From Pseudomonadota bacterium (GTDB taxonomy: Bacteria > Pseudomonadota > Alphaproteobacteria > Rhizobiales > Rhizobiaceae): a stretch of DNA of 50,603 nt. The stretch covers positions 1 to 50,603 of the forward strand of contig JAEXMK010000114.1 in the NCBI GenBank assembly GCA_023444445.1. Direction: 5' to 3'. Made by a program: the position numbers and the translations under genes. The notes under the pieces were generated by a model. That model was not told the DNA's origin and did not search any database. It saw nothing but the letters and a program-made list of their open reading frames with translations. Of this stretch, positions 23,526 to 46,092 are shown one piece after another; position 1 is the stretch's first letter, and each line of letters opens with the position of its first letter.

Positions 23526-23527
23526 CT

Positions 23528-23749: not shown

Positions 23750-23871
23750 AACGATCATTGGCCTGTCAGAAAATGCTATTGGTGGTTTCAGATCGAGAAT
23801 AATCGCTGGTAGGTAGCCTCGTCAGGGTCTGCCGTTTCTTCAGTGCTGGTCCTTCACGAGTGCCTGTTTAA

Positions 23872-24374: not shown

Positions 24375-24388
24375 ACCGTAACCGTGTG

Positions 24389-24396
24389 AGTGTGTG
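24389..24396. repeat. Left target-site duplication of the IS66 element
   Basis: AGTGTGTG directly abuts the left inverted repeat and is repeated exactly at 26937-26944. Eight base pairs is the duplication size of the IS66 family. Confidence 0.9.
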
Positions 24397-24473
24397 GTAA
24401 GCGGGTAGGCCACCCCACGTAGCGGATTTTCGGTTTGAGGCTCATTTTCCTCGTGAATCACGAGGAGAGTCAT

Positions 24474-25221: not shown

Positions 25222-25296
25222 ACATGCCTGCCGGATTGGGCGCTAAAATCGGCTGAACCCATTGGAAAACAGGGCGTTTTGTGCTCTATTCCATGC

Positions 25297-27058: not shown

Positions 27059-27277
27059 ATGATTGAACCGTCCAACGAAATCCTCACACTTGAGGAAGTC
27101 GCCGCCTATCTGAAAGCTGGCCGGCGCACGGTCTATCGCTTGGCGGCCAATGGGCAGATTCCCGCGTTTAAATTGGGCGGTACATGGCGCTTCCACCGCG
27201 CCGAATTGGATCGGTGGATCGCGGCGCAAATAGCCAGCCAAGAAGAAAAGCCCAAGCCGGACGAGGGGAAGCAATGA
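27059..27277 (+). CDS. HTH_17 (excisionase/MerR-like) DNA-binding protein, first gene of the BREX operon
   Basis: A 72-residue single-domain winged helix: ILTLEEVAAYLKAGRRTVYRLAANGQIPAFKLGGTWRFHRAELDRWIA. This is the classic HTH_17 pattern shared by recombination directionality factors and small regulators. ATG at 27059 is preferred, although the frame continues upstream to 27002. Its stop overlaps the brxF start by ATGA, tying it to the defence operon rather than to ICE excision. The likely role is operon regulation or a DNA-binding BREX subunit; an excisionase role cannot be excluded from the fold alone. Confidence 0.8.
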   Translation: MIEPSNEILTLEEVAAYLKAGRRTVYRLAANGQIPAFKLGGTWRFHRAELDRWIAAQIASQEEKPKPDEGKQ

Positions 27278-27771
27278 CCCATGCGTTCTCACTATCGGCA
27301 GAGATGGCCCACCTTCCTGCGCTTGAACGGCTCATCGGGGAAATCAACTCACTCCAGAGCAAGCTAATCCTGCTCGTCGGCAGCAGCGGCAAAACGCGCC
27401 TGCTGCGCGCTTTGGCGCGACGGTTGAGTGCTAAGCCTCTCAATCTTGGTGTGACGCTGGGGCGTCGCTTGGCTGTCACGCCCGTCTCAGATCGCAGCTT
27501 CTCGACGAACGAGCTGCTCCGCGAAATCACCTATTACGTGGACGGTGACGCTCCGCTGCTGCTCGACAACCTCGAAGTGCTCTTTGAGCCTAGTCTGAAG
27601 GTCAATCCACTCAACGTCATCAAACTGCTGGCGCACTCACGCCCGGTCATAGCGGTATGGCCAGGTGAAATGAGAAACGATCGACTGATTTACGCCCGCA
27701 TGGGACATCCCGAACACCGCGACTACAGCCGCGACGGCATCGTCGTTTTTGAAACGGCGCAACGCCAATAA
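27274..27771 (+). CDS. brxF: BrxF, BREX type 3 P-loop protein
   Basis: A 165-residue small ATPase. The P-loop VGSSGKTRLLRALA lies at residues 35-48, followed by a putative Walker B hydrophobic strand APLLLDNLEVLF near 91-102. Its size, position directly upstream of a very large BrxC ATPase, and single P-loop domain match BrxF, a signature of BREX type 3 (Goldfarb et al. 2015 classification). It is cytoplasmic, and its biochemical role is not established. It overlaps the HTH gene by ATGA and precedes brxC by 21 bp. Confidence 0.85.
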   Translation: MTHAFSLSAEMAHLPALERLIGEINSLQSKLILLVGSSGKTRLLRALARRLSAKPLNLGVTLGRRLAVTPVSDRSFSTNELLREITYYVDGDAPLLLDNLEVLFEPSLKVNPLNVIKLLAHSRPVIAVWPGEMRNDRLIYARMGHPEHRDYSRDGIVVFETAQRQ

Positions 27772-27792
27772 GTGGACTGGAAGGTCAGGAAT

Positions 27793-30700
27793 ATGAAGTA
27801 CAAAGATCTCATTCAGTTCGAGCAGATCGAGTCGGTTGTTCAACTGCTCGACGCCGACCGTCCCGACGAAGCCAAGAAACTCGTTTCGACATTTGTCATC
27901 TCCGATGACATGGCCGAACGCATTGCCAAACTCATGGTGCCGCAGCTCGGCTTCGACGAATCTGTCGATCACAAGGGCGTGCTCATCGTTGGCAACTACG
28001 GCACCGGTAAATCGCACCTGATGTCGGTGCTATCACTGGTGGCCGAAGATGCAGCCTATGCGCAGATGATCCGACACCCCAAAGTGGTGGATGCTGTCGC
28101 GTCCATCGCGGGGCGCTTCAAGGTGCTGCGCATCGAAGTTGGTGGCCTTGAAATGCCGCTGCGCCAGATCATCACCCAGCAGATCGAACGCTTCCTCAAG
28201 AAACTCGACATCGATTTCACCTTCCCGAGCGCCGATCAGGAACTGAACAATAAAGACTCCTTCGAGGAGATGATGGCTGCGTTCGGCGAAAAGTTCCCGG
28301 ATCAGGGGCTTTTGCTCGTGGTGGACGAGTTCCTTGAATACCTGCAATCACGTCGCGATCACGAACTGGTGCTTGACCTGGCCATCCTGCGTCAGATCGG
28401 CGAAGTTGCCAAACATTTGAAATTCCGCTTCGTTGCGGGTGTGCAGGAAGCCATCTTTGATAGTGGTCGGTTCCAGCACGTCGCTGACAGCATCCGCCGC
28501 GTCAACGAACGCTTCACGCAAATCCTGATCGACCGCCAGGACGTGAGCTTCGTTGTATCTGCGCGCCTGCTCAAGAAGTCCGCCGACCAGCAGAATAAAA
28601 TTCGCGAATACCTGAAGCCTTTCGCCAAGTTCTACGGATCGATGAACGAGCGTATGGACGAGTATGTGCGGCTATTCCCGGTTCATCCGGATTATCTCAA
28701 AACCTTCGAGCAGATTCACTTCACCGAGAAACGTGGTGCGCTCAAAACCATCGAAGCCGCGATGCAGGCCATTCTCGATCAGAACGTTCCCACTGATCGG
28801 CCGCAACTGATCGCCTATGAAAGCTTCTGGAATACGGTCAAGAGCAACCAGGTGCTGCGCGCCGATCCCAACATCAAGGAAGTCTTGCGCGTATCTGAAG
28901 TTCTGGAATCTCGCATCCAGCAGGCATTCACGCGACCGACCTACAAGCCGATGGCGCTGCGCGTTATCAACGGCTTGGCTGTGCATCGCCTGACCACCGG
29001 CGGCGACATCCACGTCCCGATTGGTCCCACCGCCGCAGAGTTGCGCGATTCCTTGTGCCTGTTCCAGCCCGGTGTCGGGGATATGCCCGGCGAACCGGCC
29101 GAGAACCTACTGTCTATGGTGCAAACCGTGATGCGCGAGGTGCTGAAGACCGTTAACGGCCAATTCATCTCCAAAGCTGCCGACACGGAGCAGTATTACC
29201 TCGATCTCAAAAAAGACGTCGACTACGATGCACAGATCGATAAGCGCGCCGAAGCATTGTCAGACGACGCTCTCGACCGCGCCTATTACAGCGCCATCAA
29301 AGTGCTGATGGAGTGCAGCGACGATCTTCGCTACCCCGGCTTCCAGATCTGGCAATATCAGATCGAATGGCAGGAACACCGCGTAGAACGCCTCGGTTAT
29401 CTTTTGTTCGGAGGTCCCAACGACCGTCCGACCGCGCAGCCCGAGCGTGACTTCTACATCTACTTCATTCAGCCATTCGACAAAGGCCAGCGTACCTACT
29501 CACAACAGCCGGATGAAGTGTTCTTGCGCTTGAAGGCGCTGGACGAGGATTACAGGCGCTATCTTTCCCAATATGCCGCCTCGCTCGACCTCAGTTCCAC
29601 GGCCAGTGGGGGCGCAAAGGCTGTCTATCAGTCTAAAGCGCAGGATGCTTTGCGCGCCATGAGCAAGTGGCTGCAAGAAAAGCAGCTGACCGCGTTTGAA
29701 GTCACATATCAGGGCAAGGCCAAAACGCTGCAAGACTGGGCCAAAGGTGTGTCACTGCGGGACCGCGCGCGCTTGGGGCCTGACGAGAGGATCAACTTCC
29801 GCGACATTGTGAACATCGTCTCGGGCCTCGTTTTGTCCCAGCACTTCACTGACATCGCGCCCGAATATCCCAAGTTTCCGGTGCTCGTCACCGAGGCCAA
29901 CCGAAAATCCCTGATTGCCAGTACGCTGCGCGCGCTGGCGGGCGGCACGCGCACCAAGGATGCTGCGGCGGTGCTTGATGCGCTGGAAGTGCTCGACGGC
30001 GAGCGTATTGACCCGGCAGGCTCCCGTTACGCCCAGGAGGTGCTGAACCGCCTCAAGGCCAAAGGCCATGGCCAGGTGCTGAACCGAAACGAACTTATCA
30101 CCGGCGCGACCGATGTGGAGTATTTCTCCCCGGTCAAGCACAGGCTTGAGCCTGATCTGCTGGTTGTGGTGCTGGGCGTACTGGCCTATTCGGGCGACAC
30201 CGTGCTCGCGATCACTGGCGACAAAATCGACTCTGGCAAGCTCTCCTTGCTGGCCGAGCGCTCGCTCGATGAACTCAAGCAATTCAAGCACATCGAGGCA
30301 CCCAAGGAAATCAACCTCGCGATTCTGCGTGCGCTGTTCGAGTTGCTCGATCTGCCATCCGGCCTGGCCCAGAAGGCCAGCCAAGGCGATAGCGAACCAG
30401 TCATCGCATTGCAGGAAAGGATCAGTGCCCTAGTGCCGCGCGTGCTCAAGGCGGGCTCCGATCTCCAGCAGGGCAAGCTCGCCTTCTGGGGCCAGAACCT
30501 GCTGCGCGAGCAAGAAGCCAAGGATTGGTATGCGCGGCTGGATGCCCTCAAAAAATTCACGGAATCTTTGTCGCCCTATAACACCGTCGGCAAGCTCAAA
30601 AACCTGCGTACCACGCAGGAAGAAATCGACATCCAGAAGAAGAATCTGGACGTGCTCGCCGGCGTCGAGCGCTTGTTGGAATTGGTCGGAGAATTGGGCG

Positions 30701-31533
30701 GCGCCGCATCCTATCTGTCGCAGGCGGAGATGATCTTGCAGCCCGGCCACGACTGGGTGAGGCAGGCCGAAGCCGCACGCAAAGCTCTGTTCGATAAGCT
30801 GGCAGAGGACCGCACGGCAGAACGCGCCGCTGCCATCCTCAGCGAAGGTCGCCAGACTCTCGCTGGGCTCAAAAAGGATTACGTCACCGCCTATATCGCC
30901 AGCCACAGCAAGGCGCGGCTCGGCGTCGCCGAAGAGAAGACACGTAATGCGCTGCGCCGGGACGACCGCTTGTTGTCGTTGCGCGTGCTCGCAGGCGTCT
31001 CGCTGATGCCAACCAGTCAGCTCACCGGCTTCGAGGACGCGCTTAACGGCCTGAAAAGCTGCTCCGCGCTGGACGAGCCGACGCTGCTCAGAACGCCAGT
31101 ATGCCCCCACTGCCAGTTCCGGCCGTCCGCCGAGCAGCTCGAACTGCTGCCAGCCGCCAGTCGCCTTAACAAGCTGGACGATGATCTCGACCAGTTGCAG
31201 GCTAACTGGCAGCAGACATTGCTGGAGAATCTGGAAGACCCCTTCACACAGGACAGTCTAGGTCTGCTGCCGCCCGTATCGAAGGCGCTAATCGATGCCT
31301 TCCTCGCCGTGCGCAAGCTGCCGGAGCCCGTTACAGCCGAGTTCGCCAACGCTGTGCAGGAAGCTCTGTCGGGGTTGGAAAAGATCACGGTCAAAGCCGA
31401 CGAACTGCGTCAGGCCCTGCTGCAAGGAGGCTCGCCCGCCACGCCGGATGAACTTCGCAAACGGTTCGACGCGCTCATCAGCGAGCGGGGCAAGGGCAAG
31501 GACGCCACCAAGCTCCGGTTCGTGATCGAGTGA
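27793..31533 (+). CDS. brxC: BrxC, large BREX P-loop ATPase (DUF6079-type)
   Basis: A 1246-residue ATPase, one of the two proteins common to all BREX systems with PglZ. Walker A GNYGTGKSH is at 67-75, preceded by HKGVLIV. Walker B LLLVVDEFLEYL is at about 173-184, and VSARLL follows near 256. The long C-terminal part is mostly helical and contains a lone CPHCQ near 1100. ATG at 27793 has AGGTCAGGA in front; a GTG at 27772 would add seven residues. Size and position next to brxF match type 3 BrxC. Role: an AAA+-like motor in phage DNA sensing, with the mechanism unresolved. Confidence 0.9.
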   Translation: MKYKDLIQFEQIESVVQLLDADRPDEAKKLVSTFVISDDMAERIAKLMVPQLGFDESVDHKGVLIVGNYGTGKSHLMSVLSLVAEDAAYAQMIRHPKVVDAVASIAGRFKVLRIEVGGLEMPLRQIITQQIERFLKKLDIDFTFPSADQELNNKDSFEEMMAAFGEKFPDQGLLLVVDEFLEYLQSRRDHELVLDLAILRQIGEVAKHLKFRFVAGVQEAIFDSGRFQHVADSIRRVNERFTQILIDRQDVSFVVSARLLKKSADQQNKIREYLKPFAKFYGSMNERMDEYVRLFPVHPDYLKTFEQIHFTEKRGALKTIEAAMQAILDQNVPTDRPQLIAYESFWNTVKSNQVLRADPNIKEVLRVSEVLESRIQQAFTRPTYKPMALRVINGLAVHRLTTGGDIHVPIGPTAAELRDSLCLFQPGVGDMPGEPAENLLSMVQTVMREVLKTVNGQFISKAADTEQYYLDLKKDVDYDAQIDKRAEALSDDALDRAYYSAIKVLMECSDDLRYPGFQIWQYQIEWQEHRVERLGYLLFGGPNDRPTAQPERDFYIYFIQPFDKGQRTYSQQPDEVFLRLKALDEDYRRYLSQYAASLDLSSTASGGAKAVYQSKAQDALRAMSKWLQEKQLTAFEVTYQGKAKTLQDWAKGVSLRDRARLGPDERINFRDIVNIVSGLVLSQHFTDIAPEYPKFPVLVTEANRKSLIASTLRALAGGTRTKDAAAVLDALEVLDGERIDPAGSRYAQEVLNRLKAKGHGQVLNRNELITGATDVEYFSPVKHRLEPDLLVVVLGVLAYSGDTVLAITGDKIDSGKLSLLAERSLDELKQFKHIEAPKEINLAILRALFELLDLPSGLAQKASQGDSEPVIALQERISALVPRVLKAGSDLQQGKLAFWGQNLLREQEAKDWYARLDALKKFTESLSPYNTVGKLKNLRTTQEEIDIQKKNLDVLAGVERLLELVGELGGAASYLSQAEMILQPGHDWVRQAEAARKALFDKLAEDRTAERAAAILSEGRQTLAGLKKDYVTAYIASHSKARLGVAEEKTRNALRRDDRLLSLRVLAGVSLMPTSQLTGFEDALNGLKSCSALDEPTLLRTPVCPHCQFRPSAEQLELLPAASRLNKLDDDLDQLQANWQQTLLENLEDPFTQDSLGLLPPVSKALIDAFLAVRKLPEPVTAEFANAVQEALSGLEKITVKADELRQALLQGGSPATPDELRKRFDALISERGKGKDATKLRFVIE

Positions 31534-31537
31534 CGTC

Positions 31538-33403
31538 ATGACCAAAGACGACCTCATCACCGCGCTCCAATCCATCGAATGGAACGACATCGAATTTAAG
31601 GAAGCGGCCTGGGCTGTACCCAAGGACGCGCTTTCGACTGTCAGCGCCTTTGCCAACACGGAGGGTGGGCATCTGGTGTTTGGCGTTAAGCAGACCAACG
31701 GCACATTTACCGTCACGGGCGTGACCGACGCCGATCAGATGCAGAACACCTTCCTAGGCCAGGTACGCGATACCAACAAGGTCAGCGTTCTCCTGCCTGT
31801 TGAGCCGAAAAAGCACGACTTACCGGAAGGCATTGTGCTGGCGTTCTACATCCCTGAAGCCTCACGGCAGCAGAAACCTGTCTATATCGATGGGAATCCG
31901 AAAAAGGCTTATATCCGCCGTGGCGGTCGTGACGATACCTGCACGGGCGACGAGCTGCTGCGCTACATCCGCGACGCATCTACTACCCGATACGATGCCG
32001 AAACACTGGACGTCGATATTAGCCGGTGTTTCGATGAAGCCTCTGTGCGTTGGTATCGTACGCGCTTTGCCGCCAGCAACCCCGGCAAAGACACTGCTGC
32101 CGATGACACCACGTTCCTGCGGAACTGGGGTTTTCTGGTCGAACAAGGCGGCGTGTTGCGCCCCACCCGCGCCGCCATTCTGGTGCTTGGCAGTGGTGAA
32201 TACGTCCGGCAGGTGCTGCCGCGGATGGTCACGGACGTGCAACTCTATCGCAACGCCAGCACCGAGTATGACTCCACGGTCCGCTGGGCCGATCGCCTCA
32301 CCGTCGAGGACAACCTCCTTAAGGCGTGGCAGGCCATCGTGGAGTTCTACTTCCGGCACAGCGAGCGCCCCTTCGCCGTGGACGCCGCCACCCTGCGGCG
32401 CGACGACGATCCGCCCGACTACATCTCCTTCCGCGAAGCCGCCATCAATCTGCTGATCCACCAGGACTTTGGCGACACCACCCGTGTGCCGGTCATCCGC
32501 TTCTTCCGCGACCAGACCGAGTTGTTCAATCCCGGTGATGCCTTCGCCTCGCGCGAGCAACTGCTCGATCCCGGTGACAAGGAGGTTCGCAACCCCAGTA
32601 TCGTGAACGCCTTCCGCCGCATCGGCCTGTCCGATCAGGGCGGCACTGGCGTGCGCGCCATCTTCGACGGCTGGCGCAAGTTAGGCTATCTGCCGCCTCA
32701 GATCGAGAACCATAGGGCCGAAAAAAGCTTCCGCCTGCGCCTGTGCAAGGTTAAACTCATCACCGAAGCCCAACTTCTGGCGCAGGCGAGCCTGGGTGCG
32801 CACCTATCCGAGCATGAGGCGGCAGTGTTTGCCTTCCTTCTGCGCAGCGGCCAGGTCGATGTGGCTGACATTAAGGCGCTGACTGGTCTCACCGGCGCGC
32901 AGGCACTGGATTTGGCGCGGCGCCTCACTGTCCAAGTGCTGACGGAACCGCTCGGCGAAGCGGCCCACACTTGGCGTCTGGTGCCTCACTTGCGCACCCG
33001 CTTCGCCGTCGATGCCGCCGCAAATGCCACGGGAGATCAACCGGCTGGCGCGGAAACGGTGGCCGCAGACACTACCGAACAAGTCACCGAACAAGTTGCG
33101 CCGGAACAGGCCGGACTTGATCGGTCACTTGATCAGTTGACGGAAGTGCAGTGGCGTATCGTCGGCTACGCCGATGTCCCGCGCTCGCTGGCCGAACTGA
33201 TGGCCCACGCCGGCTATCGCCAGCGCCCGCACTTCGTTGCCACGCATATGGACCCACTCCTGACCGGCGGCGTACTGCGCCCAACCATCCCGGATAAGCC
33301 GCGCTCGTCGCGGCAACGCTACGTGCTCACAGAAACGGGCATCCAACTCAAGCTACTGCGCGAACAGGCGCTGGCCAAGCCGGACGAAGACGATGGATAT
33401 TGA
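31538..33403 (+). CDS. AlbA_2/RecG-like ATP-binding protein inserted in the BREX operon
   Basis: A 621-residue protein. The N-terminal AlbA_2 (Schlafen-type) domain is seen in WNDIEFKEAAWAVPKDALSTVSAFANTEGGHLVFGV (15-50) and KKAYIRRGG near 121-129. A HATPase_c_4-like segment follows, with an N-box-like FREAAINLLIHQDFG (298-312) and NPSIVNAFRRIGLSDQGGTGVRAIF around 352-376. The C-terminal third looks like two winged helices (from LSEHEAAVFAFLLRSGQVDVADIKALTG, and the final 90 residues). Annotated relatives are often called RecG-like, but no helicase motifs are present. It is not one of the six core BREX-3 genes. It starts 4 bp after brxC and overlaps the next gene by 11 bp. Confidence 0.8.
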   Translation: MTKDDLITALQSIEWNDIEFKEAAWAVPKDALSTVSAFANTEGGHLVFGVKQTNGTFTVTGVTDADQMQNTFLGQVRDTNKVSVLLPVEPKKHDLPEGIVLAFYIPEASRQQKPVYIDGNPKKAYIRRGGRDDTCTGDELLRYIRDASTTRYDAETLDVDISRCFDEASVRWYRTRFAASNPGKDTAADDTTFLRNWGFLVEQGGVLRPTRAAILVLGSGEYVRQVLPRMVTDVQLYRNASTEYDSTVRWADRLTVEDNLLKAWQAIVEFYFRHSERPFAVDAATLRRDDDPPDYISFREAAINLLIHQDFGDTTRVPVIRFFRDQTELFNPGDAFASREQLLDPGDKEVRNPSIVNAFRRIGLSDQGGTGVRAIFDGWRKLGYLPPQIENHRAEKSFRLRLCKVKLITEAQLLAQASLGAHLSEHEAAVFAFLLRSGQVDVADIKALTGLTGAQALDLARRLTVQVLTEPLGEAAHTWRLVPHLRTRFAVDAAANATGDQPAGAETVAADTTEQVTEQVAPEQAGLDRSLDQLTEVQWRIVGYADVPRSLAELMAHAGYRQRPHFVATHMDPLLTGGVLRPTIPDKPRSSRQRYVLTETGIQLKLLREQALAKPDEDDGY

Positions 33404-35282
33404 AACCTCCGGTGCCATCAGGCTGTTTTTCCCCAACCCATCGTTGACGCTGGTCTATTTTGAAGCGCTGGCCAATGCGCTGGACGCGGGCGCGACTGAC
33501 GTGTCGATCGATATCGACATTCAAGCTTTTGATCAGCCCGAGACGTTGAAAATTGCCGTCTCGGACAACGGCGATGGGTTCACCGACGAGAACTTCGATC
33601 GTTTCAAAACCCTGTTGAAGCCCAGGGACAAGTTCCACAAGGGAATTGGTCGCTTGGTGTTTCTTAATTACTTCAATCGCGTTGAAGTTGTCAGTACACG
33701 GGACACCTGGCAAAGGACGTTTACTTTTAAAGAAGGCTTTGATGGCAACGCGCCACTTCAAAATATTGAGCAGTCCAAAGCCGCCAAAACAGCGCTCACA
33801 TTCACTGGTTTTACCGGAGCGCGCGTAAAGTCCTATGACGATCTGAAACCGGATGCCATCAAGCCGCTCTTGATCGAACAGTTTCTACCGACTCTGGATG
33901 CGCGCAAACGTGATGGCAAAGCATTCAAGATTTCGGTCAACTTAAAAACCAATGAAAGCAACGCGCAGAAAGATTTCTTTCCGAACGAGGTAGCGATAAC
34001 TGCCGATGACTTGCCAGCAATGACCAAGATCACCATCCAGGACAATACACTGGATGCCATCTCGACCATTGATATGCACTATCACATTGCTCCGGTATCA
34101 GGAAAAGGCAGCTCACTTGTCGCGTTTAGTATCGATGGCCGAACAATACCAGCGAACCTGATCCCTTCGTCATCGTTCCCGCCGGGGCACCTTTGCGTTT
34201 TTCTCTTCGAGTCCGAGCTTTTCCATTCGAATGCGGACAGCTCTCGGCAAAAGCTTGTGCTGCCAGAGGGAACACCTGAGGCTCATCTTTTCCGAGTTCT
34301 GCGCCGTGAACTTGGCAGGGTTCTGGCTGAGCAGGTCCCACAGATCACCGAACGGAATGAAAAAACCAAAGAAAAATTTGAAGAGCAATTCCCACATTTG
34401 CTCGGATTTTTTGAGGACGACACCGTTGGCCTAATCGACCGGGATGATGCGCTGTCGATCGCACAGCAGCGATTTTTCAAAGAGCAGAAGGCAATACTTC
34501 AGTCTGAAAAGCTGAACGATGCCTCGTACGAAAAATCCTTGGAAATGTCATCCCGAACGCTGACCGAGTATATTTTGTATCGAGACAAAATCATTAGTCG
34601 AATGAAGGAGATGACGGGTGGCAACGCAGAATCCGAGATTCACAATCTGATCGTTCCACGATTTAAAGAGTATTCGCAAAGCGCCATGCCATCTGAGATA
34701 TACCAGAATAATGCTTGGTTGCTCGATGACAAATTCATGGTTTTCAGGACCATCCTGAGCGAGAAGAGCATGGATGCCGTCATCAATGCCGTACGCCTGG
34801 ATGATGAAGTCGTAGGCGATACGGGTCGGCCGGATATCGCGATGATCTTTTCGGCAGACCCCAGCGACTCAACGCCAGTCGATGTCGTGGTTGTTGAGAT
34901 CAAAAAGAAGACGGATGACGAGAAAGACAATTCCTACGCTGTGAATCAGCTCCTGGACCGAGCTGGTAAGCTTGTTGCGCATTGTCCGAACATTCAGCGC
35001 GTTTGGTATTACGCGATTATGGACGTCAATGACGTAATGGCCTTTCGCTTAAGGCAGCTTAAGTGGACGCCATTTTTCTCAAAAGGAAGGGTTTACTATC
35101 AGGAATTTGAGACCCCGCATCCTGATGGTCGCGTTATCCCGACGCCGACCTTCGTAGTTTCGTTTGATGCAGTCGTAGCTGATGCCGAAAGCAGAAACCA
35201 TACCTTCTTAGAGATTCTACGGGAGGGTATGAAAAAATACGCTGACGAACATGCCGACAGCAAAGCTCCTGGCGATGAATAA
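33393..35282 (+). CDS. GHKL (paraMORC/MutL-like) ATPase fused to a PD-(D/E)XK-type nuclease domain
   Basis: A 629-residue protein. The Bergerat ATP site is explicit: N-box YFEALANALDAGA (22-34), G1 DNGDGF (58-63), G2 FHKGIGRLVFLNYF (81-94). A transducer-like middle follows, including a lysine in SSRQKLVLPEG. A helical Lys/Glu-rich stretch covers about 315-420. The C-terminal part carries RPD (D481), then VDVVVVEIKKK (E502, K504), which is the D-(x)n-E-x-K pattern of PD-(D/E)XK nucleases, plus YAVNQLLDRAGKL. Similar GHKL ATPases are known from restriction-modification neighbourhoods as paraMORC proteins. It is visibly AT-richer than flanking genes and is not a core BREX-3 component, so it may be a later addition. 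Confidence 0.8.
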   Translation: MDIETSGAIRLFFPNPSLTLVYFEALANALDAGATDVSIDIDIQAFDQPETLKIAVSDNGDGFTDENFDRFKTLLKPRDKFHKGIGRLVFLNYFNRVEVVSTRDTWQRTFTFKEGFDGNAPLQNIEQSKAAKTALTFTGFTGARVKSYDDLKPDAIKPLLIEQFLPTLDARKRDGKAFKISVNLKTNESNAQKDFFPNEVAITADDLPAMTKITIQDNTLDAISTIDMHYHIAPVSGKGSSLVAFSIDGRTIPANLIPSSSFPPGHLCVFLFESELFHSNADSSRQKLVLPEGTPEAHLFRVLRRELGRVLAEQVPQITERNEKTKEKFEEQFPHLLGFFEDDTVGLIDRDDALSIAQQRFFKEQKAILQSEKLNDASYEKSLEMSSRTLTEYILYRDKIISRMKEMTGGNAESEIHNLIVPRFKEYSQSAMPSEIYQNNAWLLDDKFMVFRTILSEKSMDAVINAVRLDDEVVGDTGRPDIAMIFSADPSDSTPVDVVVVEIKKKTDDEKDNSYAVNQLLDRAGKLVAHCPNIQRVWYYAIMDVNDVMAFRLRQLKWTPFFSKGRVYYQEFETPHPDGRVIPTPTFVVSFDAVVADAESRNHTFLEILREGMKKYADEHADSKAPGDE

Positions 35283-35299
35283 AGAAAAGATGGGCTGAT

Positions 35300-38065
35300 A
35301 TGAACGATCTACTGAACAACCATCGCAACGGAACGAACGGCCCGGTTGAATGTCTCGGTGAGACCTTTGCCAGCGACGATGTTCGACGTGAGCATTTCCT
35401 GAAGCTGCTGGCCGAGAAGCTGGAAGACCCCGCGTTTCGCAAGCAGGAGGGGTTTCCGAAGGGATCGGATGCGGCGATTCTCGCCATGTCTGACCCGCCA
35501 TACTACACCGCATGCCCGAACCCGTGGCTGGCGGAATTCGTGGCGCATTACGGCAAGCCCTACGACCCGACGGCGAAGTACAGTCGCGAACCGCTGGCGA
35601 TCGATGTGAGCGTGGGTAAGACCGACGCTATCTACAAGGCGCACAGCTACCACACCAAGGTCCCACACTTGGCCATCGTGCCATCGATCCTGCACTACAC
35701 CCAGCCGGGCGAAGTGGTGCTAGACGGTTTTTCTGGTTCGGGAATGACCGGCGTTGCCGCACAATGGTGCGGCACAGCACCGTCCAGCTACCGGCACGAA
35801 CTGGAACTGAGCTGGAAGAAGGAAGGCCGCGCCGCACCCAAATGGGGGGCGCGCCGCGCCGTGCTGAACGATCTGTCGCCAGCTGCCACCTTCATCGGTG
35901 CGAACTACAACATCCCCTTCGATGTCGATGCGTTCGCCAAGGCGGGGGAGCAATTGCTTAAGGCCGTGGAACAGGACGTCGGCTGGATGTACGAAACGCT
36001 TCACAGCGACGGTAAGACCAAGGGTCGCATCGAATATACGGTGTGGAGCGAGGTATTCAGTTGCCCGGAATGCGCGGGCACTGTGAACTTCGTCGCTGAG
36101 GCGCTGGAAGTCGAAAGTAAGCGGGTGCGCGACGTGTTTCCGTGCCCGCACTGCGGCGCGGAACTGAATAAAGACAGGCTGGAGCGCGTGTTGGAATCGC
36201 GCGTCGATCCGGCGACCGGCCAGTCTTGGCAGCGGGTGAAGTTCCAGCCGTCGATCATTGCCTATTCGATCGGTAAGACTCGCTACGAGAAGGAACCTGA
36301 CGCAGCGGACTTGGCCACCTTGGCAGAGATCGAAGCTCTGCCGCTACCCGCGTCCGTGCCAACGAGTCGCTTTCCGATCGAGGATATGTATCACGGCTCA
36401 CGAATTGCTCCCAAAGGCTTCACCCACATCCATCACTTCTTGCTGCCGCGCGCGGCGCAGGCGATGGGCGCATTGTGGGCAAAGGCGCAAGCGCATCCTG
36501 ATGCCCGCGTGCGCCTGTTTCTAGAGTTCTTTGTGGAGCAAGCGATTTGGACGGCCACGTTGTTGAACCGATACCGTCCTACAGGCTTCTCGCAGGTCAA
36601 TCAGTATCTGACAGGCGTGTACTATGTTGCATCTCAACATGCCGAGTGCAGCCCCTGGTACATCCTTGATGGAAAGCTCAGCCGGCTGGCTAAGACGTTT
36701 CAAGCGTTCAAGCCTGCCCCAAATGTGGCTGTCTCGACGGGCACAGCAGCGAGGCTTCCACTATCCGACGACACGGTTGATTACATCTTCACCGATCCGC
36801 CATTCGGCGAGAACATCTATTATGCCGATCTGAACTTTCTGGTCGAGGCTTGGCACGGCGTCACCACCGACGCCAAACCGGAAGCCATCATCGACAAGTT
36901 CAAGAACAAGGCGCTGCCCGAATACCAGCACCTGATGCAGCGCTGCTTCGCAGAATATCACCGGGTACTGAAGCCGGGGCGCTGGATGACCGTGGTGTTT
37001 TCCAACAGCAAGGCGGCGGTGTGGAACGCTATTCAGGTCGCCTTGCAGCAAGCAGGCTTTGTGGTGGCCGAGGTAACGGCCCTGGACAAGGTGCAGGGCA
37101 GCTACCGGCAAGTAACGTCCACCACTGCCGTCAAGCAGGATCTGGTGATTTCAGCCTATAAACCCAACGGCGGGCTGGAAGACCGTTTTGAGAAGAGCGG
37201 CGCGACCGTGGAGTCGGCCTGGGACTTCGTGCAGACCCATTTGCGCAATCTCTCCGTCACCAAGGTGAAGAGCGGTGAACTGGAGTTCATCGTCGAGCGT
37301 GATCCACGCCGCATCTACGACAGGTTGGTGGCATGGTTCGTGCGCCACGATGCGCCCGTGCCGCTATCCAGCGACGAGTTCCTCTCCGGTATTCGCAGCC
37401 GCTTTCCCGAGCGTGACGGCATGGTTTTCCTGCCAGAGCAGGTAACAGAATACGACAAGAAGCGCGCTCAAAACGCGCAGGCGCCGCAGATGGAGCTGTT
37501 CGTCTCCGACGAGCGCAGCGCCATCGACTGGGTGGCGGACTTCCTGAAGACGCGGCCTTCTAGCTATCAGGACATTCATCCTGAGTTTACGAAGCAATTG
37601 GGTGCGGGTTGGAAGAAGCACGAGGCGCGACCCGAGCTTATGGCTCTACTGGAGGCAAACTTCCTGCGCTACGATGGCAAGGGCGAGGTGCCGAGCCAGA
37701 TTCACCGCTATCTCTCCACCAACTACCACGACCTTCGCGGTCTGGAGAAAACAGATCCGCGCCTCAACGCCCGCGCACAGGATCGCTGGTATGTGCCCGA
37801 TCCGAACAAGGCGCAGGATTTGGAGAAGAAGCGCGAAAAGGCGCTGCTCAAGGAGTTCGAGACCTACAAGGCATTTACCGGCCGCAAGATCAAGGAAACG
37901 CGGCTGGAGGTGCTACGGGCAGGTTTCAACGCAGCGTGGGCGGCGAAAGACTACGCCACCATCCTCGGCATCGCCCACAAACTGCCCGACGAAACCCTGC
38001 AAGAAGATGAGCGGCTACTCACCCTCTACGACATGGCGCTGACGCGCACCGAAGACGGAGCATAA
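35300..38065 (+). CDS. pglXI: PglXI, BREX type 3 adenine-specific DNA methyltransferase
   Basis: A 921-residue DUF1156-like N6-adenine methyltransferase, expected to mark host DNA as self. The SAM-binding motif LDGFSGSGMTGVAA lies at 141-154. A catalytic-type motif TDPPFGENIYYADLNFLVEAW is at about 498-518. A second SDPPYYTACPNPWL occurs early (64-77). A zinc-ribbon is formed by CPEC and CPHC (about 256-290). The C-terminal third (from about 690) has no motif I recognise and could be the target-recognition part. The start at 35300 follows AAAAGATGGGCTGAT. It starts 17 bp after the GHKL gene and is followed by brxHII after 3 bp. Confidence 0.88.
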   Translation: MNDLLNNHRNGTNGPVECLGETFASDDVRREHFLKLLAEKLEDPAFRKQEGFPKGSDAAILAMSDPPYYTACPNPWLAEFVAHYGKPYDPTAKYSREPLAIDVSVGKTDAIYKAHSYHTKVPHLAIVPSILHYTQPGEVVLDGFSGSGMTGVAAQWCGTAPSSYRHELELSWKKEGRAAPKWGARRAVLNDLSPAATFIGANYNIPFDVDAFAKAGEQLLKAVEQDVGWMYETLHSDGKTKGRIEYTVWSEVFSCPECAGTVNFVAEALEVESKRVRDVFPCPHCGAELNKDRLERVLESRVDPATGQSWQRVKFQPSIIAYSIGKTRYEKEPDAADLATLAEIEALPLPASVPTSRFPIEDMYHGSRIAPKGFTHIHHFLLPRAAQAMGALWAKAQAHPDARVRLFLEFFVEQAIWTATLLNRYRPTGFSQVNQYLTGVYYVASQHAECSPWYILDGKLSRLAKTFQAFKPAPNVAVSTGTAARLPLSDDTVDYIFTDPPFGENIYYADLNFLVEAWHGVTTDAKPEAIIDKFKNKALPEYQHLMQRCFAEYHRVLKPGRWMTVVFSNSKAAVWNAIQVALQQAGFVVAEVTALDKVQGSYRQVTSTTAVKQDLVISAYKPNGGLEDRFEKSGATVESAWDFVQTHLRNLSVTKVKSGELEFIVERDPRRIYDRLVAWFVRHDAPVPLSSDEFLSGIRSRFPERDGMVFLPEQVTEYDKKRAQNAQAPQMELFVSDERSAIDWVADFLKTRPSSYQDIHPEFTKQLGAGWKKHEARPELMALLEANFLRYDGKGEVPSQIHRYLSTNYHDLRGLEKTDPRLNARAQDRWYVPDPNKAQDLEKKREKALLKEFETYKAFTGRKIKETRLEVLRAGFNAAWAAKDYATILGIAHKLPDETLQEDERLLTLYDMALTRTEDGA

Positions 38066-38068: not shown

Positions 38069-40894
38069 GTGACGGGAGGTGGCTTCGATATCGGCGATTG
38101 GTGCTGGCACACGCGGCAGGCTACGCCTTGCCGCGTGGTCGAGCGGCTGACGCTGTGGGGCGATTCGGCCTACCGTGTGTGGCTGCCCGCGAAGGACGCC
38201 GTGCTCCGCGCATGGGCGGCGGAGTTGGCGGTGCTCTCCAGCGTGCGCCCCACGGTGGAGCAGATTCTGCACGCCACTGCGGCGGCCAAGCTGCAGGATG
38301 CGCTCGAAGATAAGCTGCTGCTCGCCCCCATTCAGTCCAGCGTCATCCCGCTACCACACCAAATCTATGCACTGAACCGCGCCGTCGGACAGGATCGCAT
38401 CCGCTACCTGTTGGCTGACGAGGTGGGTCTGGGCAAGACAATTGAGGCCGGTCTGGTTCTGCGCGAACTGAAGTTGCGCGGACGTGCCAAGCGCATTCTG
38501 GTGGTCGCGCCAAAAGGGCTGGTGCGACAATGGCAGGCGGAAATGCGCCAGCATTTTGGGGAGTCGTTCCATTTCGTCGATCCCTCATCGCTGGCTGCTT
38601 TGCGGCAATGGCGCGGGGTTAGTGACGAAGACAATGCCTGGCGGATGCACGACCAAGTGATCTGCGCCCTGGATTCGGTGAAGCCGATGGAATCGCGACG
38701 TGGCTGGAGCCTGGATCAGATCCAGGCCTACAACCGCGAACGCTTCGAGGATCTGGTGTCGGCGGCCTGGGATCTCGTCATCATCGATGAAGCTCACCGT
38801 ATGGGCGGTAGCACGGAACAGGTGGCGCGCTACAAACTGGGCGCGGCGCTGGCCGAAGCCTCGCCCTATCTGCTGCTGCTTTCGGCTACGCCCCACCAAG
38901 GTAAGACCGATCAGTTCATGCGCTTGATGCAGTTGCTGGATAGGGATGCTTTCCTCGACGAAGGCAGCGTCAGTCGCGAGCGTGTGCAGCCTTTCGTGAT
39001 CCGCACCGAGAAGCGCGCCGCCATCAATGCCGAAGGGCAGCCACTGTTCCGCCCCCGGCTCACACGCTTGCACCCTGTTGCGTGGCAGGCGCGGCACGCG
39101 GCGCAACAGCAACTGTACGAAGCCGTAACCGATTATGTGCGCCACGGCTACAATCAGGCTCTGGCAGCCAAGCAGCGCCACATCGGCTTTCTGATGATCT
39201 TGATGCAGCGGCTGGTGACGTCCAGCACCGCTGCCATCCGCGCCACGCTGGAGAAACGCCAAGCCGCTCTGGACACGTCGCAGCCGCAGCCGCGCCTCTT
39301 CGACACTCTCAGCGTCGACGAGTGGGCTGATCTTGACGGTGAAGCGCAGGTGGAACTAGCGCTTCAAGCCAACGGTCTGGAGCTGGAGAAATCGGAGGTC
39401 GAAACGCTGTTGGCGTTGGCGCGCTCTACCGAGGCTGCCGGCACCGACGCAAAGGCCGAAAGCCTGCTGGAGCTGATTTACAAGCTGCAACAGGAGGAAG
39501 GTGACCCTGCGCTGAAAATCCTGGTGTTCACCGAGTTCGTGCCGACGCAGGCGATGCTGTCGGACTACATGGAAAGCCGGGGCTTTACGGTAGCCACGCT
39601 CAACGGTGGCATGGACATGGAAGCCCGCACCCGAACTTTGCAGACTTTCGCAGGGGACGCGCGAGTGCTGATTTCAACCGATGCGGGCGGCGAAGGTTTG
39701 AACCTCCAATTCTGCCACGTCATCGTCAATTTCGACATGCCGTGGAATCCGATGCGCATCGAGCAACGCATCGGCCGCGTGGATCGTATCGGTCAGAAGC
39801 ACGTCGTTCGCGCTCTGAACTTCGTGCTGGAAGACACGGTGGAATACCGCGTCCGGCAGGTTCTGGAGGAAAAACTTGCCATCATCGCCGATGAGTTCGG
39901 CGTGGACAAAGCGGCAGATGTCATGGATTCAGCCGAAGTGGAGCCGGTGTTCGACGAACTTTTCGTCCAAAGTCTCCAGCACCCGGAAGCAATTCAACGC
40001 GAATGCGAAAGCGTGATTTCGCAGTTGCGCGCCACTCTGGAGGAATCCAACCGGAACAGCGGTCTACTGATCGTACCCCACGACCTCGATGCGGAGCAAG
40101 CGCGCAAGTGGCGCGACCACCCGGCGCAATTCTGGTTGGAACGTGCCGTCGTCAACGGACTGCCACTACGCGGCGGATCGGCGACCCAAGATGGCAAACT
40201 CTGGCACGTGCGCTGGGCTGACGGTGCAGAGACACCACAGGCCTGCTTCGACGTGCGCGCTGCAGGCGAAAATCCGGCGGCAGAATGGCTGACAATGGAA
40301 GACACGCGAGCGCGGGCTATCATCAGTGATATACCGCGGTTCGTTGCAGGCCAGCCTTTGCCCGTAATCCGGGTGACGGGCCTGCCGGACTCATTCAGCG
40401 GTATCTGGTCGCTATGGGAAATCGGACTTGCCGCACCGGGCGCGAACCGAAAGCGTTTTCTGCCGGTCTTCGTCAATGACGAGGGGCGCTCTTTTGTGCC
40501 TGCCGCCAAGCGGGTTTGGGATCTGTTGTTGACGGAAACCGTGTCCGTGTCGTCAGTGGCCGATCCGGAAGATTCTGCACGCTGGTACGAGACGTCGTTC
40601 TCGGTGGCAGGCACGCAAGGCGAATCCCTGTTCACAGCGCTAACAGAAGAGCACCTTTCCCGTATCAACGAAGAACGGGATCGTGCCACGTACGCTTTCG
40701 ATGCTCGTAACCAGGCGATCGGGCGCATTGGCCTGCCTGCCGTGCGCCAGTTCCGTCGCCGGCGCCTGCAAACCGAGCACGAGGCACGCCTGGCCGCGCT
40801 TGACGAAATGAAGTCCAGCGTGCCGGAATTGAATGCCGTGACCATGGTTCGGATTGACGCCAATGCCGGCAAGACCAGCGAGCGTGCCGCATGA
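38069..40894 (+). CDS. brxHII: BrxHII, SNF2/RapA-like helicase of BREX type 3
   Basis: A 941-residue superfamily 2 DNA translocase. Motif I DEVGLGKT (117-124), motif II DEAH (240-243) and motif III SATPHQG are followed by LVFTEFVPTQAML, LISTDAGGEGLNLQ and motif VI QRIGRVDRIGQ (566-576). The C-terminal 300 residues are helicase-family specific and unclassified. The start is GTG at 38069, immediately after pglXI. Overlaps pglZ by ATGA. DrmD of DISARM is a close relative in form, but the neighbours place this one in BREX. Confidence 0.9.
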   Translation: MTGGGFDIGDWCWHTRQATPCRVVERLTLWGDSAYRVWLPAKDAVLRAWAAELAVLSSVRPTVEQILHATAAAKLQDALEDKLLLAPIQSSVIPLPHQIYALNRAVGQDRIRYLLADEVGLGKTIEAGLVLRELKLRGRAKRILVVAPKGLVRQWQAEMRQHFGESFHFVDPSSLAALRQWRGVSDEDNAWRMHDQVICALDSVKPMESRRGWSLDQIQAYNRERFEDLVSAAWDLVIIDEAHRMGGSTEQVARYKLGAALAEASPYLLLLSATPHQGKTDQFMRLMQLLDRDAFLDEGSVSRERVQPFVIRTEKRAAINAEGQPLFRPRLTRLHPVAWQARHAAQQQLYEAVTDYVRHGYNQALAAKQRHIGFLMILMQRLVTSSTAAIRATLEKRQAALDTSQPQPRLFDTLSVDEWADLDGEAQVELALQANGLELEKSEVETLLALARSTEAAGTDAKAESLLELIYKLQQEEGDPALKILVFTEFVPTQAMLSDYMESRGFTVATLNGGMDMEARTRTLQTFAGDARVLISTDAGGEGLNLQFCHVIVNFDMPWNPMRIEQRIGRVDRIGQKHVVRALNFVLEDTVEYRVRQVLEEKLAIIADEFGVDKAADVMDSAEVEPVFDELFVQSLQHPEAIQRECESVISQLRATLEESNRNSGLLIVPHDLDAEQARKWRDHPAQFWLERAVVNGLPLRGGSATQDGKLWHVRWADGAETPQACFDVRAAGENPAAEWLTMEDTRARAIISDIPRFVAGQPLPVIRVTGLPDSFSGIWSLWEIGLAAPGANRKRFLPVFVNDEGRSFVPAAKRVWDLLLTETVSVSSVADPEDSARWYETSFSVAGTQGESLFTALTEEHLSRINEERDRATYAFDARNQAIGRIGLPAVRQFRRRRLQTEHEARLAALDEMKSSVPELNAVTMVRIDANAGKTSERAA

Positions 40895-42927
40895 ACAAAT
40901 GGCATCAACGCATTCTTGGCTCTTTTACGGCGGATCTCTCTCGGCTGTGGGTGGCCTGCGATCCCGACGGCGTGCTGCTCGACGAAAAGCTCCTGTCCGA
41001 ATTGCGCTCTCGCGGTTTCGAGGTGATGGGATACGACGACCCCTTTAGGTTTCGCGCTGAATATGAGGAGCGGTATCGCGCAGCTTGGGATTCCAACGAC
41101 CCGGCGCCGTCATCAGCGCTGATCGTGCATCTGAGCCACGACAACGCGAACGATTTGCCCTGGGACATCGTACATAACGCTCGCCCAGCAGTTCGACTGA
41201 ATCTCGCCGAACTGCTCCCCAAGCTAGCGTATGGCGCTGTGCGGCAAGTAGAGCCGGAAAGGCTGGGCTTACTGTTCGATGCCCACCAAACCGAGTTGCA
41301 GTCTGTGCGCGGTGAAAAAGAATCGAGGGATTTCATCCTCGAGCACGTTTATCAGTTGACGCCGCGATCCATCCGCACGCCTGTAGATTTCTGGCGCGAA
41401 ACGCTGCGACTGCACTTTGCTGGGCGCGCATTACCGGAGCCGTTCGCCGAGCATGTGGCGACCATCCTCCACGACAGAGGCTTGCTTGTCGGCCATCCGG
41501 TATCAGAGTGGTTGTCATCCAAGAGTGCGCTGCTGCGTGTGGTGCAGCATGGGTGGTATCGCAATCTTGAAAAGCTCAAGCTGGATGGCAATCCTGTAAT
41601 CAAGGCTCCTGTGACACCCGATGGTGCAGGCGAAACCGGCATGGAAATCGAGATCCCCTTTGATCACACCGACGTACACGCAATCATCGATTCGATGTTC
41701 CTTGACGGCAGCTTACATCCGCTTGCGGTATCCGCCGTTCCAACCGCCATGCCGGGCTGGATCAAAGCCGGCGTCGTTGCCGACAAGTCGTCACAACTCG
41801 CGCTGATGGAAAAAAGCATTGAGGCGCTTGCCTCGGCGGTGCCGAATGTAGATTCCTCTCATAGGCAGTGGAGCGACTTTGCCAAGCGCTTTGGCGAGAT
41901 GCTGAGCCGGGTTCACGACCTGCCAGGCATGGATGCCGGTGAACGGATGACTACCATCAGAGCGCGTGTCAAAGAGATCCAGACACTGGCGGACGAACAG
42001 TTGCAGGCATGGATCATCGCAGGCCACTATGCCGACCTGATCCTACAACCGTCAATCAAAGGCCCGGTGATGGTGCACCACGTTCCGCGCTTCCTGCGGC
42101 AGCGCCGCAGCGCGGGCGAGATCAAGGTTGCACTACTGGTGTTCGACGGAATGGCTTTCGATCAATGGGTACAGATCAGGGAGCATCTGATTGCCACCCA
42201 GCAGCCTTTCTCGTTCGACGAGAACACCGCCTTTGCGTGGCTTCCCACGGTTACATCAGTGTCCCGCCAAGCGCTCTTCTCCGGTTTGAGACCACGTGAG
42301 TTCGACGATTCCATAGACCACACCAACAAGGAAGAAGCCTTGTGGAAAGCGTTTTGGCAAAGCGAAGGCAATATTGCGTCCGGCGAGGTAATGTACCGTC
42401 GCTCGCTGCACCAGGTCGAGCAACTGGATACCCTGGAAGCCGACATTACAAGCCGTAAGCCCAGTGTCTTGGGGCTGGTAATCGATGAGGTGGATGAACG
42501 ACTACACAAAGAGCGGTCCAAGGAAGATGTAGCGATGTGGATCGGGCGCTGGCTCGGCTCCGGCTTTGTTGAGCGCCTGTTTGCCTTCCTGCTAAGCGAA
42601 GGGTTCAGCATCTACGTCACCGCGGATCACGGCAATGTAGATGCTATCGGCGTAGGTCGGCCCAATCAGGGAGTAATCGCAGAAACACGTGGCGAGCGCG
42701 TGCGTGTTTATCGTAGCGACCCGTTGCGCGCCGAGTCCGCGGTGGCCTATCCGGGTACTGTCGCCCTGGACATCTCCGGGTTGCCAGCGAACTTGAAACC
42801 ACTCTTCGCTGGCGGGCGCACTGCCTTCGTTCCGAACGGCGAGCAGGTGGTCGTCCATGGCGGCGTGTCGGTCGAGGAACTGGTCGTTCCCTTCGTGAGG
42901 GTCTCAGATATGAGTGGAGCTAGGTGA
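40891..42927 (+). CDS. pglZ: PglZ, BREX alkaline-phosphatase-superfamily protein
   Basis: A 678-residue protein, the defining BREX component. The metal-binding features of the alkaline phosphatase fold are readable: LLVFDGMAFDQW with D419, PTVTSVSRQALFSG (nucleophile region, 452-465), VTADHGN with D579/H580, and HGGVSVEELVVPF with H656. The N-terminal 400 residues are the variable PglZ part. In other BREX systems PglZ proteins bind divalent metals and are needed for defence; the substrate is unknown. It overlaps brxHII (ATGA) and brxA (GTGA). Confidence 0.92.
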   Translation: MNKWHQRILGSFTADLSRLWVACDPDGVLLDEKLLSELRSRGFEVMGYDDPFRFRAEYEERYRAAWDSNDPAPSSALIVHLSHDNANDLPWDIVHNARPAVRLNLAELLPKLAYGAVRQVEPERLGLLFDAHQTELQSVRGEKESRDFILEHVYQLTPRSIRTPVDFWRETLRLHFAGRALPEPFAEHVATILHDRGLLVGHPVSEWLSSKSALLRVVQHGWYRNLEKLKLDGNPVIKAPVTPDGAGETGMEIEIPFDHTDVHAIIDSMFLDGSLHPLAVSAVPTAMPGWIKAGVVADKSSQLALMEKSIEALASAVPNVDSSHRQWSDFAKRFGEMLSRVHDLPGMDAGERMTTIRARVKEIQTLADEQLQAWIIAGHYADLILQPSIKGPVMVHHVPRFLRQRRSAGEIKVALLVFDGMAFDQWVQIREHLIATQQPFSFDENTAFAWLPTVTSVSRQALFSGLRPREFDDSIDHTNKEEALWKAFWQSEGNIASGEVMYRRSLHQVEQLDTLEADITSRKPSVLGLVIDEVDERLHKERSKEDVAMWIGRWLGSGFVERLFAFLLSEGFSIYVTADHGNVDAIGVGRPNQGVIAETRGERVRVYRSDPLRAESAVAYPGTVALDISGLPANLKPLFAGGRTAFVPNGEQVVVHGGVSVEELVVPFVRVSDMSGAR

Positions 42928-43658: not shown

Positions 43659-43770
43659 GCGGCCTTTACAGCGTCAAATCGCAACTTGTACTGAATGTCG
43701 GCATCGGTAGTTGCGTGCCCCCGCAACCAAGTCAAACCTGAATGTTCGACCATTCATATCACCTAACAGA

Positions 43771-43997: not shown

Positions 43998-44011
43998 TTA
44001 GACGATCGGCA

Positions 44012-46080: not shown

Positions 46081-46092
46081 AACACAAGTCTG

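What the first reader, a model, noticed from the sequence alone, without database searches (positions are those of the whole stretch)
33393..35282. GHKL ATPase-nuclease fusion embedded in a BREX type 3 operon
Seen: complete Bergerat motifs (N-box, DNGDGF, KGIGRL) at the N-terminus and a D481...E502-x-K504 pattern at the C-terminus in one protein, inside the brxC-pglXI interval. Known: GHKL paraMORC/MutL-like ATPases occur in restriction-modification neighbourhoods, and the six core BREX-3 genes do not include one. Inference: an ATP-gated DNA clamp with a nuclease that gives BREX, which lacks an identified nuclease, a cutting arm, or a back-up defence if BREX is inhibited. Its AT-richer composition suggests independent acquisition.
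Basis: partly seen in the sequence, partly recalled or inferred. Interest (0 to 1): 0.75.

Follow-up and report, generated by a model that had tools for sequence, protein, structure and literature searches.

The report
Clamp-nuclease passenger in a BREX-3 operon
A bacterial anti-phage operon carries an extra gene for an ATP-driven DNA clamp fused to a likely DNA-cutting domain, a known protein design that some but not most operons of this type seem to pick up as an add-on weapon.

Summary
Window 33393-35282 encodes 629 aa with the GHKL ATP-binding motifs, a MutL/MORC-type transducer (predicted) and a C-terminal E413-D481-E502xK504-Q519 signature. That signature is invariant in an alignment of 69 sequences, 57 of the 68 others being only 17-22% identical to it. 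The gene lies inside a complete BREX-3 operon.

The architecture is known: paraMORC3 (PMC2292703); VcSduA is an experimentally active example (PMC12137116). The Pfam Shedu signature is not met.

It is not a BREX-3 core component. In a census blind to the gene, 1 of 13 assessable BREX-3 loci had it. The 9 searched carrier genomes without adjacent BREX-3 genes have no DUF6079 match. It sits in a variable cargo slot between brxC and pglXI that elsewhere is empty or holds Schlafen, OLD-like ATPase or Mrr genes.

In two pairs of near-identical operons PglXI's recognition region differs while this gene stays 98-99% identical, so it is unlikely to read the BREX site itself.

Best reading: a self-contained, ATP-gated accessory DNase riding in BREX-3. 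DNA cleavage is inferred, not shown.

The parts
33393..35282 (+). GHKL ATPase-nuclease fusion gene (paraMORC3-like), 629 aa
   Evidence: ORF and translation; HATPase_c_3/HATPase_c over cut-off; no PADLOC model matches at E 0.001
33393..34337 (+). GHKL ATP-binding domain plus S5-type transducer, residues about 1-315
33462..33485 (+). N-box E24..N28..D31
   Evidence: E24 and N28 invariant in 69 of 69
33564..33581 (+). DNGDGF, residues 58-63
   Evidence: D58, G60, G62 invariant in 69 of 69
33639..33656 (+). KGIGRL, residues 83-88 (ATP-lid side)
   Evidence: G84, G86, R87 invariant in 69 of 69
34623..35255 (+). Putative PD-(D/E)XK nuclease domain, residues about 411-621
   Evidence: model order H413-420, E453-456, E482-486, E496-503, H510-530, E534-542; weak Pfam hits under cut-off among 12 C-terminal fragments: HSDR_N best 0.0015 (2 of 12), NotI 0.023 (1), PDDEXK_9 0.19 (3), beside unrelated families
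34629..34643 (+). E413-x-x-x-H417 in the first helix of the nuclease domain
   Evidence: both invariant in 69 of 69
34833..34835 (+). D481 (within RPD)
   Evidence: invariant in 69 of 69
34896..34904 (+). E502-x-K504
   Evidence: invariant in 69 of 69
34947..34949 (+). Q519 in the helix after the ExK strand
   Evidence: invariant in 69 of 69
31538..33403 (+). Schlafen-family gene (SLFN_AlbA_2 + HATPase_c_4), co-passenger of the same slot
   Evidence: Pfam; overlaps the GHKL gene by 11 bp; present in 16 of 19 BREX-3 loci found by the GHKL gene
27184..27771 (+). brxF
   Evidence: NF033453 150 bits, cut-off 50
27772..31533 (+). brxC, type 3 (DUF6079)
   Evidence: PF19557 1861 bits; PADLOC BrxC
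35300..38065 (+). pglXI methyltransferase
   Evidence: PADLOC PglXI 1353 bits
38069..40894 (+). SNF2-type BREX-3 helicase (BrxHII position)
   Evidence: PADLOC model named BrxHI|BrxHII 1462 bits (its description says BrxHI); SNF2-rel_dom and Helicase_C
40891..42927 (+). pglZ, type 3
   Evidence: NF033449 725 bits, cut-off 250
42924..43658 (+). brxA
   Evidence: PADLOC BrxA 276 bits

Best explanation
The gene encodes a paraMORC3-like ATP-gated DNA clamp with its own PD-(D/E)XK-type nuclease domain. It is an accessory anti-phage effector carried as cargo in a variable slot between brxC and pglXI of BREX-3, probably co-transcribed with BREX but not part of its core. Proposed working: two protomers bind ATP, their GHKL domains dimerise and close the transducer clamp around DNA, and closure or hydrolysis licenses the C-terminal domains to nick or cut it. 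The trigger is a feature of phage DNA or of infection, not the BREX methylation sequence. Shown: intact ATP-binding and nuclease-type residues under strong purifying selection; GHKL + transducer fold (prediction); operon position; patchy presence; unchanged sequence where PglXI's recognition region differs. Inferred: dimer clamp, DNA cleavage, trigger, anti-phage activity, single transcript.
For: Invariant ATPase and E-D-ExK-Q residues in 69 of 69 sequences. AF2 model pLDDT 82 with MORC/MutL/Hsp90/GyrB-like N-terminal 315 residues and an alpha-beta-beta-beta-alpha-beta order carrying the motif residues where a PD-(D/E)XK core would have them (core order recalled). Same architecture described as paraMORC3 (PMC2292703) and shown anti-phage in VcSduA, where E27A and K557A abolish protection (PMC12137116); relative P0163 has its N-box E at 27 and ExK lysine at 557. 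Passenger status: GHKL in 1 of 13 assessable BREX-3 loci found blind to it; in 4 plasmid BREX-3 regions read (of 11 records matching PglXI) 0 have it, two showing brxC-Schlafen-pglXI and two brxC directly beside pglXI. Of 29 loci found by the gene, 19 have BREX-3 genes with it; of the other 10, the 9 whose genomes were searched have no DUF6079 match at E 0.001. The gene adjoins a type IIG/I-like enzyme in L018 and shares a run of genes with a IIG-like one in L019, and a 23%-identical relative sits inside a BREX-1 locus, L001.
Against: No biochemical or phage data for this protein. The nuclease domain has no above-threshold match to a PD-(D/E)XK family and none to a solved structure; unrelated families match it about as weakly; its fold could not be searched apart from the GHKL part. 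VcSduA itself was not aligned. Within the close clade the gene does cling to BREX-3: 19 of 29 loci (the scan's patterns came from close homologues, so the share is not an unbiased estimate) and a starred 15-row all-BREX-3 clade. Its divergence tracks brxC (rho 0.63) and the helicase (0.71) over 45 pairs of 10 loci, so long co-residence, perhaps co-operation, is not excluded. It has no evident promoter of its own: promoter-like sites in the region are at chance level (5 found, 6.4 expected). The carrier genomes without DUF6079 may be incomplete.
Confidence: 0.62

Rival explanations
1. BREX-directed cutting arm: the GHKL nuclease is recruited or licensed by the BREX-3 complex (BrxC, PglXI, helicase), which supplies self/non-self information, and cuts what BREX marks as foreign.
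For: Inside the operon with short junctions (17 bp to pglXI, 11-bp overlap with Schlafen); 19 of 29 loci found by the gene are BREX-3; divergence tracks brxC, helicase and pglZ, rho 0.63-0.72; where PglXI's recognition region differs the GHKL stays the same, as expected if PglXI alone holds the address.
Against: 12 of 13 blind-sampled BREX-3 loci do without it; 9 of 19 carrier genomes searched have no BREX-3 brxC; VcSduA, a single gene, protects when expressed alone (PMC12137116).
Confidence: 0.2
2. Two-gene module with the neighbouring Schlafen protein: the Schlafen AlbA_2/HATPase_c_4 protein senses or cuts RNA and the GHKL nuclease cuts DNA, both needed.
For: 11-bp overlap; Schlafen in 16 of 19 GHKL-carrying BREX-3 loci against 5 of 12 GHKL-free ones (Fisher p 0.02, not corrected for kinship); the pair also occurs, with distant versions, in the BREX-1 locus L001.
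Against: Three BREX-3 loci carry GHKL with no Schlafen match (L023, L024, L031), and others carry Schlafen without GHKL (L061, L063, L064, L068, L071; two plasmids). Gene order varies: Schlafen before (L003), after (L014, L015, L022) or beyond pglXI (L012).
Confidence: 0.12
3. Not an effector: a regulator, chaperone or repair clamp in which the C-terminal domain only binds DNA.
For: GHKL + transducer modules in MutL/Hsp90 remodel complexes without that module cutting (recalled); no above-threshold nuclease family match.
Against: E413, D481, E502, K504 and Q519 invariant in 69 of 69 sequences, most at 17-22% identity, hard to explain without catalysis; occurrence in BREX and R-M neighbourhoods.
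Confidence: 0.06

Closest known systems
paraMORC3 family of GHKL ATPases (Iyer, Abhiman, Aravind 2008, PMC2292703)
   Same: N-terminal GHKL with all motifs, S5-type transducer, C-terminal domain with E-D-ExK, found in R-M neighbourhoods or as standalone genes, prevalent in proteobacteria and bacteroidetes
   Different: The parts of the 2008 text read (three of four) do not mention BREX; membership was not tested against its reference sequences. This one belongs to a shorter (about 620-630 aa) set with frequent BREX-3 residence
VcSduA, GHKL 'Shedu type I-D' of Vibrio cholerae (PMC12137116)
   Same: GHKL + PD-(D/E)XK architecture in one polypeptide; catalytic positions E27/K557 coincide in number with relative P0163
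   Different: VcSduA is reported to carry the Shedu signature DUF4263; the window's protein does not match Pfam SduA_C at E 5, and at most 1 of 69 aligned members could at E 0.1. VcSduA's sequence was not compared
Auxiliary/backup effectors of BREX loci (PMC12839542, 2026)
   Same: Nuclease cargo genes, among them PD-(D/E)XK enzymes, Shedu and Schlafen proteins, embedded among BREX core genes
   Different: The main text contains none of GHKL, MORC, HSP90, HATPase, Bergerat, gyrase or MutL; its supplementary gene lists could not be read
BbrUII/HgiDII family restriction enzymes (NF050001)
   Same: N-terminal match at the GHKL N-box (E 0.00013)
   Different: 20.6 bits against a cut-off of 550; only residues 21-71 match
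MutL / MORC ATPases
   Different: MutL models far below cut-off (22.9 against 180 bits)

Membership tests
paraMORC3 | N-terminal GHKL domain with intact ATP-binding motifs | tested here: met
paraMORC3 | S5-type transducer after the GHKL domain | tested here: met
   A3 profile matches MLH1 residues 216-332, E 3.7e-4; model residues 1-318 align to MORC and MutL
paraMORC3 | C-terminal RE-fold domain with E-D-ExK | tested here: inconclusive
   motif residues invariant in 69 of 69 and predicted topology compatible, but no above-threshold family match and no separate fold search
paraMORC3 | groups with the 2008 reference sequences | not tested
   reference sequences not at hand
Shedu (SduA) | SduA_C / DUF4263 (PF14082) domain | tested here: not met
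   no match of the window's protein at E <= 5; of 69 aligned members at most 1 could match at E <= 0.1, since PF14082 is not among the 25 of 41 families shown and the unshown ones have one member each; hhalign to three SduA_C proteins E 0.12 and 0.021, probability 0.5 and 2.2
BREX type 3 core gene | present in most BREX-3 loci | tested here: not met
   1 of 13 assessable loci from a DUF6079 census
BREX type 3 system (the operon) | brxF, brxC, pglXI, brxH, pglZ, brxA together | tested here: met
MutL | NCBIfam MutL equivalog cut-off | tested here: not met
   22.9 bits against 180
BbrUII/HgiDII restriction enzyme | NF050001 cut-off | tested here: not met
   20.6 bits against 550
PD-(D/E)XK nuclease | metal-dependent DNA cleavage | not testable with these tools
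   needs biochemistry

The most novel reading that the evidence does not exclude
The GHKL clamp-nuclease is a specificity-blind cutting arm that BREX-3 addresses through PglXI. Near-identical operons that differ mainly in PglXI's recognition insert keep the same nuclease, as type I R-M systems keep HsdR while swapping HsdS (analogy recalled). A subset of BREX-3 would then be a true swappable-address restriction machine with an ATP-gated MORC/MutL-type cutter.
Probability: 0.18. Interest if true: 0.72.

Novelty: new member of a known kind. Interest (0 to 1): 0.42.

Why it matters
It adds a concrete, testable effector to the list of BREX add-ons and points to a specific site, the brxC-pglXI junction, where BREX-3 gains and loses weapons. 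If BREX steers it, it would answer how some BREX-3 systems destroy DNA and would tie MORC/MutL-type clamps to immune targeting. If it acts alone, it is a good model for how ATP-gated GHKL clamps control nucleases.

Tried and rejected
Recent acquisition from the GC dip: rejected, because relatives in other hosts show the same low GC. Coupling to PglXI specificity: rejected (rho 0.23, and the L009/L026 and L014/L015 pairs; pglXI correlates with no gene, so the rho alone is weak). Shedu membership by Pfam: not met. The first structure model, from 17 close homologues, was poor (pLDDT 49) and was not used. Fold searches were filled by the GHKL part, so no PD-(D/E)XK structure appeared in the 50 rows shown; this is no evidence against one. 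A5 profile against the PDB: nothing. Phage or viral origin: no match in 50,697 phage records; in IMG/VR 57 stretches matched a pattern and none encoded a relative. Plasmids gave only two distant hits, E. coli genomes none. A search with P0163 to reach V. cholerae VcSduA listed no protein named as from V. cholerae among its best 120. Gu et al. on Shedu is not held, known only as cited. PMC13373217 holds both GHKL and BREX as terms and was not read. Own promoter or terminator: chance level.

Census limits: 17 non-centre genomes with a DUF6079 match at E <= 1e-30 in three samples that partly overlap, of which 13 could be judged; dropped were L072, L073, L077 and L078 (pglXI not on the contig, or fragments). 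The Fisher test of Schlafen with GHKL (an earlier count, missed two divergent Schlafen genes) ignores kinship. The tree used 25 of the 29 loci; L023, L028, L029 and L030 were left out. The correlations used 10 loci. Only some neighbours of the BREX-3-free loci were scanned, so the context of L016, L017, L020, L021, L025, L027 and L029 is open; L017 has a type II methylase gene nearby.
Full report
WHAT IS THERE. Pfam finds HATPase_c_3 (E 3.2e-7) and HATPase_c (1e-6), both over cut-off; no PADLOC model matches it at E 0.001. The operon runs brxF, brxC/DUF6079, a Schlafen AlbA_2 + HATPase_c_4 gene, this gene, pglXI, SNF2 helicase, pglZ-3, brxA. Junctions are 0, 4, -11, 17, 3, -4 and -4 bp, and promoter- and terminator-like sites are at chance level, so one transcript is likely (inference).

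IS IT MORE THAN CHANCE. A first protein search gave 1279 relatives among 7997 scored candidates, the best 120 being 78-93% identical. A search with a 23%-identical relative from Fusobacterium (L001) gave 68 more. An alignment of 69 sequences (chosen from the two listings and, the window's own included) has 21 invariant columns: ten in the ATPase part (E24, N28, D58, G60, G62, F71, G84, G86, R87, S101) and eleven in the C-terminal part, including E413, H417, D481, E502, K504 and Q519. Of the 68 others, 57 are only 17-22% identical to the window's protein, so the residues are held by selection.

WHERE RELATIVES LIVE. A scan of genome contigs, with patterns from close homologues, gave 29 loci. 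BREX-3 genes lie with the gene in 19; in 10 they do not. Genomes of 19 of the 29 loci were searched for DUF6079: 10 have it, and the 9 without it are all from the second group. In that group L018 has a type IIG/I-like enzyme directly upstream and L019 a type IIG-like enzyme in the same run of genes. The Fusobacterium relative lies between pglX and pglZ of a BREX-1 locus that also has a Schlafen gene. In 398 proteobacterial genomes 7 besides the centre have a relative at E 1e-20, none with a DUF6079 match; in the six of these loci read, no other window BREX or Schlafen protein was found nearby. On the tree the BREX-3 state needs 4 changes, but starred branches force only 1.

IS IT A BREX-3 COMPONENT. 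DUF6079 was sought blind to this gene in 398, 385 and 369 genomes, samples that partly overlap. Leaving out the three centre genomes, 17 genomes had a match at E <= 1e-30, and in 13 brxC and pglXI lie on one contig. One of 13 has the GHKL gene (L067), confirmed by profile search. The interval between brxC and pglXI holds Schlafen in 6 (with GHKL in L067 and Mrr in L064), an OLD-like ATPase (AAA_21/AAA_15) with a small partner in 2, unidentified ORFs in 2, and nothing in 3. Of 11 plasmid records with a PglXI match, four were read: two with Schlafen alone and two with an empty junction. In L003 the slot is stacked further: an AAA_21 gene (397 aa) and a DUF4276 gene (209 aa) stand before Schlafen and GHKL; L026 has a 397-aa ORF at the same place. 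The interval is a cargo slot and this gene is one of its passengers.

DOES IT READ THE BREX SITE. L009 and L026 are 96-100% identical in brxC (the last third only in L009), Schlafen, GHKL, helicase and pglZ but 76% in PglXI, with the difference concentrated at about residues 200-500 (36-63% per 50 aa). L014 and L015 show the same: 98-99% elsewhere, 72% in PglXI, low from about residue 150 to 500. PMC12839542 places PglXI's recognition insert within its methylase domain. So the likely methylation address changed and the GHKL gene did not. Among 45 pairs of 10 loci, GHKL identity follows brxC, helicase and pglZ (rho 0.63-0.72), not PglXI (0.23), which follows nothing.

COMPARISON WITH THE KNOWN. 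paraMORC3 was defined as GHKL + S5 + RE-fold domain with E-D-ExK, partly standalone (PMC2292703, parts 1-3 of 4 read). VcSduA, of the same design, protects against phages and needs E27 and K557 (PMC12137116, passages and section 12). A relative here, P0163, has the matching residues at exactly 27 and 557, a suggestive but indirect link. The Shedu Pfam signature is not met. BREX auxiliary effectors, including PD-(D/E)XK enzymes, Shedu and Schlafen (at least 1017 taxa), are reported in PMC12839542 (section 35 part 1, section 25 part 1 and passages read), whose main text has no GHKL-type term. Six literature searches listed no paper whose title or abstract start puts a GHKL-nuclease in BREX-3; supplements and most subscription papers were out of reach.

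VERDICT. Real, well conserved, correctly recognised in outline, and probably an ATP-gated accessory DNase. Apparently not yet described as a BREX-3 passenger, but of a known kind.

Noticed in passing
L009 and L026; L014 and L015 (pglXI): Near-identical BREX-3 operons differ mainly in about residues 150/200-500 of PglXI (33-63% per 50 aa, while the other genes compared are 96-100% identical): apparent natural swaps of the methylation-specificity insert.
   Followed up: partly
window 31533-35300; L003, L012, L015, L062, L064, L071, L075: The brxC-pglXI junction is a cargo slot holding Schlafen, OLD-like ATPase + small partner (DUF4276 in L003), Mrr or GHKL genes, singly or stacked; in L069, L070, L076 and two plasmids it is empty.
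   Followed up: partly
L001 790-21805: Fusobacterium BREX-1 locus packed with extra genes: AriA-like ATPase (PDC-M12A), Schlafen, distant GHKL-nuclease, DUF4209, AAA-ATPase + PDDEXK_9.
   Followed up: partly
L089 4625-8019: Vibrio fluvialis plasmid type I R-M operon ends in a gene annotated Shedu immune nuclease overlapping by 4 bp a paraMORC3-like ATP-binding gene, 54% identical to P0163.
   Followed up: no
window 11400-24400: traG/trb conjugation module, 92% identical over 95% of this stretch to Ketogulonicigenium vulgare plasmids; an IS66 transposase (25279-26928) stands between it and brxF.
   Followed up: partly
window 43700-50603: Downstream of brxA lies DNA distantly similar to Gfo/Idh/MocA oxidoreductase and ABC transporter genes of alphaproteobacterial, mostly Rhizobium, plasmids.
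   Followed up: no
L078: Remnant BREX-3 locus: brxF and the first 118 or so codons of brxC run straight into the end of pglZ and brxA, an apparent large internal deletion or a misassembly.
   Followed up: no
L025 and L027: In two genomes without BREX-3 brxC the GHKL reading frame is interrupted, with in-frame stops from codon 244 and 339 on, by decay or assembly error.
   Followed up: no
P0101: A close homologue (81%) named as from Pseudomonas aeruginosa stands for 157 contigs; whether it lies in BREX-3 there was not seen.
   Followed up: no
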